In this document: one piece after another, positions 386-34,817 of the stretch
Position numbering within the stretch: position 1 is the stretch's first letter
Layout: each line of letters begins with the position of its first letter
Assembly: GCA_028873525.1 (NCBI GenBank)
Contig: JAGWIM010000007.1
Span: forward strand, 1 to 39,252
From: Pseudomonadota bacterium
GTDB taxonomy: Bacteria; Pseudomonadota; Alphaproteobacteria; Rickettsiales; SXRF01
DNA: 39,252 nt
Direction of reading: 5' to 3'
Program-made: the position numbers and the translations under genes
Notes under the pieces: model-generated
What the model was told of the DNA's origin: nothing
Databases searched by the model: none
What the model saw: only the letters and a program-made list of their open reading frames with translations

Positions 386-461
386 AGCGGGATAGAGCAG
401 TGGAAGCTCGCGTGGTTCATTTGCCACGAGGCCGCCGGTTCGATTCCGGCTCCCGCACCCA
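386..461 (+). tRNA. tRNA-like sequence, CAU anticodon, 8-nt anticodon loop
   Basis: A 76-base cloverleaf can be drawn. The acceptor arm pairs GCGGGA (387-392) with TCCCGC (451-456), with an A:A mismatch at position 1:72 and an encoded CCA at 459-461. The D stem is GAGC/GCTC, the anticodon stem CGTGG/CCACG, and the T arm GCCGG-TTCGATT-CCGGC. The loop TTCATTTG has eight bases instead of seven, so function is doubtful. CAU with a mismatched first pair recalls initiator tRNA-Met. It ends exactly where the capsid frame resumes, which suggests it is a phage-borne tRNA or a deletion scar. I am confident of the fold but not of activity. Confidence 0.5.
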
Positions 462-33701: not shown

Positions 33702-33725
33702 CCCGCGTAATGCCGCTCATCCCGG
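33616..33725. repeat. Inverted repeat with about 10-base units at the tadA start
   Basis: The left arm has GGATGA-type units about 10 bases apart (AGGATGAAAGGGGATGAG, then AATGGATAAGAGGGGATGAG). The right arm has TCATCCC units in the opposite sense (CTCATCCCGCGTATCCCGC, then TCATCCATTTTCATCCCGCG). They can pair over about 40 bases. The element covers the N-terminal codons of tadA up to the end of sspB. Confidence 0.65.
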
Positions 33726-34196
33726 CTTCTTGCGGAACGCATCCAGCGAAATGATTTCCGCCGAGCTTTCATCCCCGGACGCGGCGGCGGGCACGATGTC
33801 CTGAGAAATGTCCGCGCCGATGATGTCGACCTCCGACAATCCCGGTTGCTGGAACTGCAGGCCGAACTTGACGTAAGGATCGGCAAAGGCCGTCAGCGCG
33901 GCAAACGGCACGAGGAGCTTTTCCGCCGCGCCGCCGAACGACAGCGTCACGCCGAACTGCTGTTCCTCAACCTTGAAATCCCAGAACTGATGCTGCAGCA
34001 CGATGGTGATGTCTTTCGGGTAGCGCGCCCGCAACTGGTCGGACATGCGCACGCCAGGATGCAGCGTGGAAAAGGAAATGTAGAAATGATGCTCGCCGGG
34101 CAGCCCGGTCGCCTGCACGCGCCGCAGCACGTCGCGCACCACGCCGCGCATCGCCTGGTCGATGAGAATCGGGTAATGGAGCTGGTCTTCGGACAT
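33717..34196 (-). CDS. sspB: ClpXP adaptor SspB, alphaproteobacterial type
   Basis: The 159-residue protein has GLPGEHHFYISFSTLHPGV, ITIVLQHQFWDFKVEEQQFG, VTLSFGGAAEKLLVPFAALT and FADPYVKFGLQF, the core of alpha-type SspB. It ends in a disordered acidic linker and a short tail (EIISLDAFRKKPG) of the sort that docks on ClpX. SspB binds the ssrA tag and brings tagged proteins to ClpXP for destruction. It lies just downstream of ssrA on the same strand, an informative pairing. Confidence 0.88.
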   Translation of the reverse strand: MSEDQLHYPILIDQAMRGVVRDVLRRVQATGLPGEHHFYISFSTLHPGVRMSDQLRARYPKDITIVLQHQFWDFKVEEQQFGVTLSFGGAAEKLLVPFAALTAFADPYVKFGLQFQQPGLSEVDIIGADISQDIVPAAASGDESSAEIISLDAFRKKPG

Positions 34197-34205
34197 AGGG
34201 AGGTC

Positions 34206-34273
34206 GTCAGTTACCGGTTATCAGTTGCCAGCCCTCATCCTACGCCGATAACCGACAACTGACAACCGACAAC
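34206..34273. repeat. Heptamer-armed inverted repeat between ssrA and sspB
   Basis: The left arm is GTCAGTT, ACCGGTT, ATCAGTT, GCC; the right arm GATAACC, GACAACT, GACAACC, GACAAC. Each arm is a run of 7-base units, and the arms are inverted relative to each other with about 17 bases between. Confidence 0.75.
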
Positions 34274-34299
34274 TTGGGAAAGTGGGGAGTTTCTGTTTC

Positions 34300-34729
34300 C
34301 CGGTACTCCCCGGACCGAGTTACGTGCTAGAGCACGCGTGCGCCGTTAGGCGGCAACGCGGGCTGCGACGACGGTGTTGTCGTTAGCAGCAACAAATGCA
34401 ACGTTGTCGTTGGCATTTAACATTGTGACCTGATTACGCCAGTATCATCGCGGGCAAAAACAAGGCCTTTATTGCGGTTGTCGAAGCTATTCGGCCCCAT
34501 AACCGGGAGAATCCCCCTTCGCTCCAAGAGGAGCTTCGGGCGACACTCCCACGCCTAAACCCGCCTTCGGGTGTCAGGCTAATCTACCTGCGCTACTCCG
34601 CAGCTTCGGCAGGCAAACGGCCTGCCACCCGAAGCCGAAGACGCGGGGTGGTGGAGCCGCCGGGTACTGCCCCCGGGTCCAATCCGTCTATTCCGACTTG
34701 CGTTTATCGCCATAGCCACTCGCGTGACA
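34300..34729 (-). ncRNA. ssrA: Two-piece (permuted) tmRNA
   Basis: On the minus strand the acceptor piece comes first. It ends in CGGCTCC-ACCA at 34649, preceded by a T-arm-like GACCCGGGGGCAGTACCC. A spacer of about 150 bases (34648-34499) with hairpins follows. The coding piece then starts at 34498 with GGGGCCG, which pairs with CGGCTCC over 7 positions including the G3:U70 wobble that alanyl-tRNA synthetase reads, and continues AATAGCTTCGAC as in tmRNA heads. The tag frame lies at 34414-34346. The order acceptor-spacer-coding is the permuted form known from Alphaproteobacteria. tmRNA with SmpB frees stalled ribosomes. The 3' end of the coding piece is uncertain (about 34275-34330). Confidence 0.92.
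34346..34414 (-). other. tmRNA tag reading frame with two ANDN motifs
   Basis: The frame encodes 22 residues: ANDNVAFVA, then ANDNTVVAARVAA, then TAA. The ANDN start is typical of alphaproteobacterial tags and the AA ending fits ClpX recognition. The second ANDN suggests an internal duplication, making the tag longer than the usual 11-16 residues. Confidence 0.85.
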
Positions 34730-34735
34730 TCTATG

Positions 34736-34764
34736 AATATAAGGCATTTCCCTGGCTTTGTGAA
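34736..34764 (-). promoter_or_regulatory. Promoter of ssrA
   Basis: On the minus strand TTCACA (34764-34759) and TATATT (34741-34736) are 17 bases apart, each one base from the sigma-70 consensus. Transcription would start near 34729, just before the acceptor piece of tmRNA. Confidence 0.7.
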
Positions 34765-34817
34765 GGGGGAAAAGTGGCTGGCCATAATTAGGCTTTTACG
34801 ATAGGATGTTGCGTATT

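What the first reader, a model, noticed from the sequence alone, without database searches (positions are those of the whole stretch)
34346..34414. tmRNA tag with a duplicated ANDN module
The tag has 22 residues and two ANDN motifs, while most alphaproteobacterial tags have one and are shorter. Alpha-type SspB recognises the N-terminal part of the tag, and sspB is the next gene. Inference: the doubled motif could give two SspB docking sites or a longer reach into ClpX, changing delivery strength.
Basis: partly seen in the sequence, partly recalled or inferred. Interest (0 to 1): 0.7.

Follow-up and report, generated by a model that had tools for sequence, protein, structure and literature searches.

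The report
Doubled SspB-docking motif in tmRNA tag
The degradation tag that this bacterium adds to proteins from stalled ribosomes carries its adaptor-docking motif twice; the doubling is real and conserved across the organism's family and much of its order, but what the second copy does has not been tested.

Summary
The minus strand holds a permuted alphaproteobacterial tmRNA gene (34768-34281, RF01849, 203.9 bits). Its tag, 34414-34346, reads ANDNVAFVAANDNTVVAARVAA-stop: 22 residues with ANDN at residues 1 and 10. Translation resumes at the first ANDN: the frame-setting A at -4 precedes motif 1 in 83 of 83 doubled tags and precedes motif 2 in none of 11 distinct tags of this family. sspB is the next gene. 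The doubling is old: all 14 tmRNAs found in the family have it, as do 16 of 23 readable families of the order (which matches Rickettsiales), and many Micavibrio-type genomes. None of 108 tags sampled elsewhere in the class has a second ANDN; they are mostly 10-13 residues. Motif 2 plus tail is 13-15 residues, a canonical tag; motif 1 plus spacer is an added module. Motif 2 is kept at protein level (pN 0.01 against 0.29 in the tail). Most likely SspB docks at either copy, with longer reach to ClpX. Simultaneous docking is doubtful: some natural repeats are 5 residues apart, and a published E. coli tandem tag showed no significant KD change. No paper found describes this; the mechanism is inferred.

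The parts
34281..34768 (-). permuted (two-piece) alphaproteobacterial tmRNA gene, ssrA
   Evidence: RF01849 203.9 bits over model positions 1-355; RF04321 136.3 bits
34346..34414 (-). tag reading frame, 22 codons plus TAA: ANDNVAFVAANDNTVVAARVAA*
   Evidence: sequence, translation
34403..34414 (-). motif 1, GCC AAC GAC AAC = ANDN, containing the resume codon
   Evidence: preceded by UAAAU; A at -4 in 83/83 doubled tags
34388..34402 (-). spacer VAFVA
34376..34387 (-). motif 2, GCT AAC GAC AAC = ANDN; not preceded by a frame-setting A at -4 (UUGCU)
34349..34375 (-). C-terminal tail TVVAARVAA, the likely ClpX-recognised end
   Evidence: ends in AA in 72 of 74 distinct doubled tags; ClpX role inferred from E. 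coli ssrA
34415..34419 (-). UAAAU, frame-setting element upstream of the resume codon (E. coli counterpart UAGUC, A86)
34362..34390 (-). possible RNA hairpin inside the tag frame that contains motif 2 on its 5' side
   Evidence: predicted folds in nearly all period-9 tags; weak synonymous-shuffle signal; no covariation support
33717..34196 (-). sspB, 159-residue alpha-type SspB with C-terminal IISLDAFRKK ClpX-binding tail
   Evidence: PF04386 145.7 bits; 2nys E 3.1e-40, 2qas E 1.3e-32, 2qaz E 7.5e-31; predicted fold matches 2nys, 2qaz and 1ox9

Best explanation
This is a genuine tmRNA tag made of a canonical C-terminal tag (ANDN plus 9 residues, 13 in all) preceded by an extra docking module (ANDN plus 5 residues). 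Tagged proteins therefore carry two SspB-type docking motifs. Most likely one SspB subunit docks at either motif in turn, which raises the chance of capture or recapture, and docking at the first motif leaves a longer free tail to reach and be gripped by ClpX. Shown: the frame, the resume site (by comparison), the conservation, the protein-level constraint on motif 2, and the presence of SmpB, SspB and ClpX genes. Inferred: that both motifs bind SspB, that binding is either-or, and that delivery is changed.
For: All 14 family tmRNAs and 16 of 23 readable order families have a second N[DE]N motif. In 20 tags of length 22, motif 2 has pN 0.012 against 0.285 in the tail and 0.120 in the spacer. 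The spacer and the repeat period vary (5 to 18, mostly 9) while ANDN persists, and its codons vary synonymously across lineages. Motif 2 to the end is 11-16 residues, mostly 13-15, in 74 distinct tags; single tags of the order are mostly 13-16. The genome encodes SspB, ClpX with its zinc domain and SmpB; ssrA and sspB are adjacent in most of the alphas examined, with either tag type. In E. coli a tandem AANDENYAANDENY tag is degraded with SspB (KM 1.41 uM) without a ClpX motif, attributed to reach, with no significant KD change (PMC8512704).
Against: No binding or degradation data exist for this tag or this SspB. In the same E. coli study a SENY spacer before ALAA did not lower KM, so extra length alone may give little. 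SspB of doubled-tag species shows no obvious special feature. In the 22-residue class motif 2 is nearly invariant even at synonymous sites (pS 0.118 against 0.901 for motif 1), so an RNA-level constraint may overlap it.
Confidence: 0.5

Rival explanations
1. Bivalent docking: both motifs are occupied at once, either by the two grooves of one SspB dimer or by two SspB dimers, giving avidity.
For: Two intact motifs, most often 9 residues apart (40 of 74 distinct tags); SspB is a dimer in known structures (general knowledge).
Against: Seven distinct tags have a 5-residue period (ANDNFANDN), too short for two roughly 7-residue footprints. The E. coli tandem with period 7 gave no significant KD change and its authors doubt double occupancy (PMC8512704). 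The period varies from 5 to 18, which argues against one fixed geometry.
Confidence: 0.14
2. Length only: the added residues help ClpX engage or grip the substrate, and the extra ANDN is an incidental relic of how the tag was lengthened.
For: First motif lies 19-25 residues from the end in nearly all doubled tags; in E. coli longer sequence before ALAA improved SspB-independent degradation (PMC8512704).
Against: Motif 2 is kept at the amino acid level while spacer and tail drift; an incidental relic should decay. Some lineages have decayed copies (ANEN, ANQN), so decay is possible.
Confidence: 0.15
3. RNA-level constraint: motif 2 is kept because its codons form a hairpin within the mRNA-like part of the tmRNA.
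For: Nearly nucleotide-invariant GTTGCNGCTAACGACAACNNNGTCGTA in the 22-residue class; predicted hairpin in nearly all period-9 tags; mean synonymous-shuffle z -1.30 for 47 period-9 tags.
Against: No compensatory changes beyond shuffles. No hairpin excess in period-5 tags (mean z +0.56) or period-7 tags (-0.12), which still keep ANDN. Codons of motif 2 vary synonymously across the whole set.
Confidence: 0.13
4. The true resume codon is at the second ANDN (34387), so the real tag is the 13-residue form.
For: Residues 10-22 alone would be a normal-looking tag. In some Micavibrio-type genomes UA stands at -5/-4 before motif 2 (33 of 83 doubled tags overall).
Against: A at -4 precedes motif 1 in 83 of 83 and motif 2 in 0 of 11 distinct tags of this family; UAAAU before motif 1 is shared with single-tag genomes. 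In E. coli A86 at -4 sets the frame (PMC2481249).
Confidence: 0.03
5. A neutral duplication with no effect, kept by chance and shared descent.
For: Tags tolerate much change in E. coli; several families of the order have single tags (f2, f6, f8, f10, f11, f12, f25).
Against: Kept across many families with different spacers and strong amino acid constraint.
Confidence: 0.05

Closest known systems
Canonical alphaproteobacterial tmRNA tag (e.g. ANDNYAEARLAA type)
   Same: Permuted tmRNA gene, UA(N3) before the resume codon, starts with ANDN, ends in AA, ssrA often next to sspB
   Different: One ANDN and 10-15 residues, against two ANDN and 22 residues
Caulobacter crescentus and Agrobacterium SspB-alpha (2QAZ, 2QAS, 2NYS)
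   Same: 48-52% identical in the structural alignment, same fold; the Agrobacterium protein shares the C-terminal SLDAFRKK tail
   Different: Serves a tag with two candidate docking motifs here
Synthetic E. coli tandem degron AANDENYAANDENY (PMC8512704)
   Same: Two adaptor-docking motifs in one C-terminal tag
   Different: Engineered, period 7, lacks the ALAA end, E. coli SspB; the natural tag has period 9 and a normal end
Tag in L038, ANDNFVFANDNNSSANLVAA (contig length 1,176,248 equals Ehrlichia chaffeensis Arkansas)
   Same: Natural doubled ANDN in the same order
   Different: 20 residues, period 7, different spacer and tail

Membership tests
Permuted alphaproteobacterial tmRNA (RF01849) | Full-length covariance model match with tRNA-like domain | tested here: met
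   203.9 bits, gathering 50, positions 1-355
Permuted alphaproteobacterial tmRNA (RF01849) | Tag frame with frame-setting element upstream, hydrophobic end and stop | tested here: met
   UAAAU|GCC...GCC GCC UAA
Permuted alphaproteobacterial tmRNA (RF01849) | Processing into two pieces, charging with alanine and tagging activity | not testable with these tools
   Needs RNA and proteomics
SspB-alpha adaptor | SspB domain | tested here: met
   PF04386 145.7 bits; fold match to 2nys and 2qaz
SspB-alpha adaptor | Disordered linker with C-terminal ClpX-binding motif | tested here: met
   pLDDT under 50 at 121-153; conserved LD.FRKK-type end in the alignment; that it binds ClpX is inferred
SspB-alpha adaptor | Binds ANDN of the tag | not testable with these tools
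   No binding assay; inferred from SspB work in E. coli and Caulobacter (general knowledge)
Doubled-ANDN tag | Second ANDN conserved in relatives at amino acid level | tested here: met
   14 of 14 family tmRNAs; pN 0.012
Doubled-ANDN tag | Both motifs dock SspB | not testable with these tools
   Inference only

The most novel reading that the evidence does not exclude
A natural bivalent degron: both ANDN motifs of one tag engage SspB together (two grooves of one dimer, or two dimers), so that in these deep-branching Alphaproteobacteria adaptor delivery to ClpX works by avidity instead of single-site docking.
Probability: 0.14. Interest if true: 0.75.

Novelty: new variant of a known kind. Interest (0 to 1): 0.47.

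Why it matters
tmRNA tags are usually treated as one adaptor site plus one protease site. A tag architecture with a conserved second adaptor-type motif, spread over the order that matches Rickettsiales and over Micavibrio-type bacteria, is a natural experiment on how docking number and distance tune ClpXP delivery. It can be tested with purified proteins in a standard laboratory system, and it also warns that tag callers should not trim such tags to the second ANDN.

Tried and rejected
Resume codon at the second ANDN: rejected on the -4 A rule and on conservation upstream of motif 1. Chance repeat: rejected (and conservation). RNA hairpin as the sole reason for motif 2: tested by synonymous shuffles and pair counts; weak in period-9 tags, absent in period-5 and period-7 tags, no covariation. 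A special SspB in doubled-tag species: no genome searched had a second SspB, and no obvious difference was seen. ssrA-sspB adjacency as a clue to doubling: rejected, it also holds with single tags. SspB tree: only 126 columns, many forks open; it needs at least 6 changes of tag type, at least 2 forced by well-supported branches, so the number of origins is unresolved; its Micavibrio rows were fetched by the doubled pattern, so their uniform doubling is by construction. Distance from the tRNA-like domain to the resume codon was uninformative. One caller error (L129) was left out, and L175 is a spurious long frame. Two papers on tag spacing and SspB-alpha that I tried by id were not held.

Full report
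What is there. The window's minus strand carries a permuted tmRNA gene. The whole alpha_tmRNA model matches 34768-34281 at 203.9 bits, and the general permuted model matches at 136.3 bits; ARAGORN on the whole window did not call it. The tag frame at 34414-34346 is GCC AAC GAC AAC GTT GCA TTT GTT GCT GCT AAC GAC AAC ACC GTC GTC GCA GCC CGC GTT GCC GCC TAA, that is ANDNVAFVAANDNTVVAARVAA. The next gene downstream on the same strand is sspB (33717-34196, PF04386 145.7 bits), closest among solved structures to the Agrobacterium and Caulobacter SspB proteins. Its predicted structure (pLDDT over 90 in most of the core) matches these and the E. coli SspB-ssrA complex. It has a long disordered linker and the IISLDAFRKK end expected to bind ClpX; such an end is conserved in relatives. 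The genome also encodes ClpX with its zinc domain and SmpB.

Where the tag starts. In E. coli the frame is set by A86, four bases before the resume codon, in UAGUC (PMC2481249). Here UAAAU precedes the first GCC. Over 83 distinct doubled-tag DNAs, A stands at -4 of motif 1 in all 83; at motif 2 it stands in 34 of 83, and in none of the 11 distinct tags of this family. The conserved UAAAU before motif 1 is shared with single-tag genomes of the order, while motif 2 is preceded by GTNGCN in most. In Micavibrio-type genomes UA does precede motif 2 (for example GTAGCC before GCT), so a second entry site there is not excluded.

How common it is. In the family all 14 tmRNAs that were found have the doubled tag, nearly identical. 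In the order, tags could be read for 23 families: 16 include a genome with a second N[DE]N motif, and 7 have single tags only. A strict DNA pattern gives a lower bound of 38 of 262 order genomes. The order matches Rickettsiales: several contigs of family members have the same lengths as contigs deposited as Rickettsiales bacteria, and L038, with the tag ANDNFVFANDNNSSANLVAA, lies on a contig of 1,176,248 bases, the size of Ehrlichia chaffeensis Arkansas (PMC7789307). Named genomes fetched by the doubled pattern include many Micavibrio-type MAGs with tags such as ANDNFAFVAANDNSVVEGEGRIAA, plus Rickettsiales MAGs and one Holosporaceae MAG. These were chosen by the pattern, so they show presence and not frequency. 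In a sample of 289 genomes of the class the pattern hits 3: this one, one of its family and one from another order. Among 108 tags read outside the order none has a second ANDN; lengths are 10-15, mostly 10-13, apart from one spurious frame and two degenerate doubles in one family, ANSNKAPVANFNRAYAAVAA and ANSNKFASANNNRFGAVASAAA. Those 108 were taken from the better-scoring tmRNAs of the class sample, so divergent lineages are under-represented.

Anatomy of the doubling. In 74 distinct doubled proteins the repeat period is 9 in 40, 7 in 10, 5 in 7, 10 in 7, with others up to 18. The distance from motif 2 to the end is 13-15 in 66 of 74. That is close to the total length of a single tag in this order (mostly 13-16). 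So motif 2 plus tail is a canonical tag, and motif 1 plus spacer is an added N-terminal module. Motif 1 is also held by the resume site; motif 2 is not, so its conservation is the more telling. In 20 tags of length 22 (found by the RNA model and not by the motif), motif 2 has pN 0.012 and pS 0.118, the spacer pN 0.120, and the tail pN 0.285. Across all doubled tags the AAY, GAY and GCN codons of motif 2 vary synonymously. This is what protein-level constraint would leave.

An RNA overlay. Within the 22-residue class motif 2 is unusually fixed even at synonymous sites (pS 0.118 against 0.901 at motif 1). A hairpin pairing its ACGAC with the GUCGU of the following VV codons is predicted in nearly all period-9 tags, and it is somewhat more stable than synonymous shuffles (mean z -1.30 for 47 tags, 10 with p under 0.05). 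Pair counts show no compensatory changes beyond shuffles, and tags with period 5 or 7 show no such excess but keep ANDN. The hairpin is possible in this class but is not a general reason for the second motif.

How it most likely works. In E. coli, SspB docks on the first residues of the tag and ClpX takes the last few (modularity as described in PMC8512704). A protein with this tag offers SspB two docking places: one at the usual distance from the end, and one nine residues further back. Simultaneous docking is unlikely as a general role. ANDNFANDN tags put the motifs five residues apart, and the published tandem AANDENYAANDENY bound E. coli SspB without a significant change of KD; its authors doubt double occupancy and attribute its SspB-dependent degradation to extra reach (PMC8512704). 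I therefore favour either-or docking with rebinding and longer reach (0.5), ahead of length alone (0.15), bivalent docking (0.14) and RNA constraint (0.13). None of these has been tested for this tag.

Origin and novelty. On an SspB tree tag type is strongly clustered (6 changes against 21.5 in shuffles), with at least 2 changes forced by well-supported branches. Single tags inside the order (for example in f18, which also has a doubled one) imply losses or repeated gains. The tree is too small to settle which. tmRNA databases must already hold many of these sequences. The two tmRNA database papers that could be read (PMC11915505, PMC4131195) and the paper searches gave no description of doubled natural tags; most subscription papers were not covered. 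I rate it a new variant of a known kind: well supported as a conserved feature, of moderate interest, with a testable but unproven mechanism.

Noticed in passing
L044 (order family f3): A 33-residue tag, ANDNNVAVNENKAVVANAANDNFIVINKAAAYA, with two full ANDN motifs and a VNEN copy between them: a possible triple docking tag.
   Followed up: partly
L255 and L259 (class family f48): Degenerate doubled tags ANSNKAPVANFNRAYAAVAA and ANSNKFASANNNRFGAVASAAA outside the order, suggesting a further independent or decayed case.
   Followed up: no
L056, L058, L115 and other Micavibrio-type loci: Motif 2 is preceded by UAGCN, resembling the E. coli frame-setting UAGUC, so a second resume site and two tag lengths from one tmRNA are conceivable there.
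   Followed up: partly
window 386-461 +: ARAGORN reports a tRNA-like sequence with a four-base anticodon (CATT), close to an ORF at 745-1155 that I read as phage-like and a DNA-methylase-like fragment at 46-369; possibly a prophage remnant at the contig end (families not searched).
   Followed up: no
window 34202-34274: Between sspB and ssrA: inverted repeat with 21-nt arms (86% complementary) and a 14-nt tandem repeat GATAACCGACAACT.
   Followed up: partly
window 34281-34768 -: The permuted tmRNA match spans 488 bases against a 355-position model; most of the extra length is an insert in the stretch between the two gene pieces, with further extra bases in the tag.
   Followed up: no
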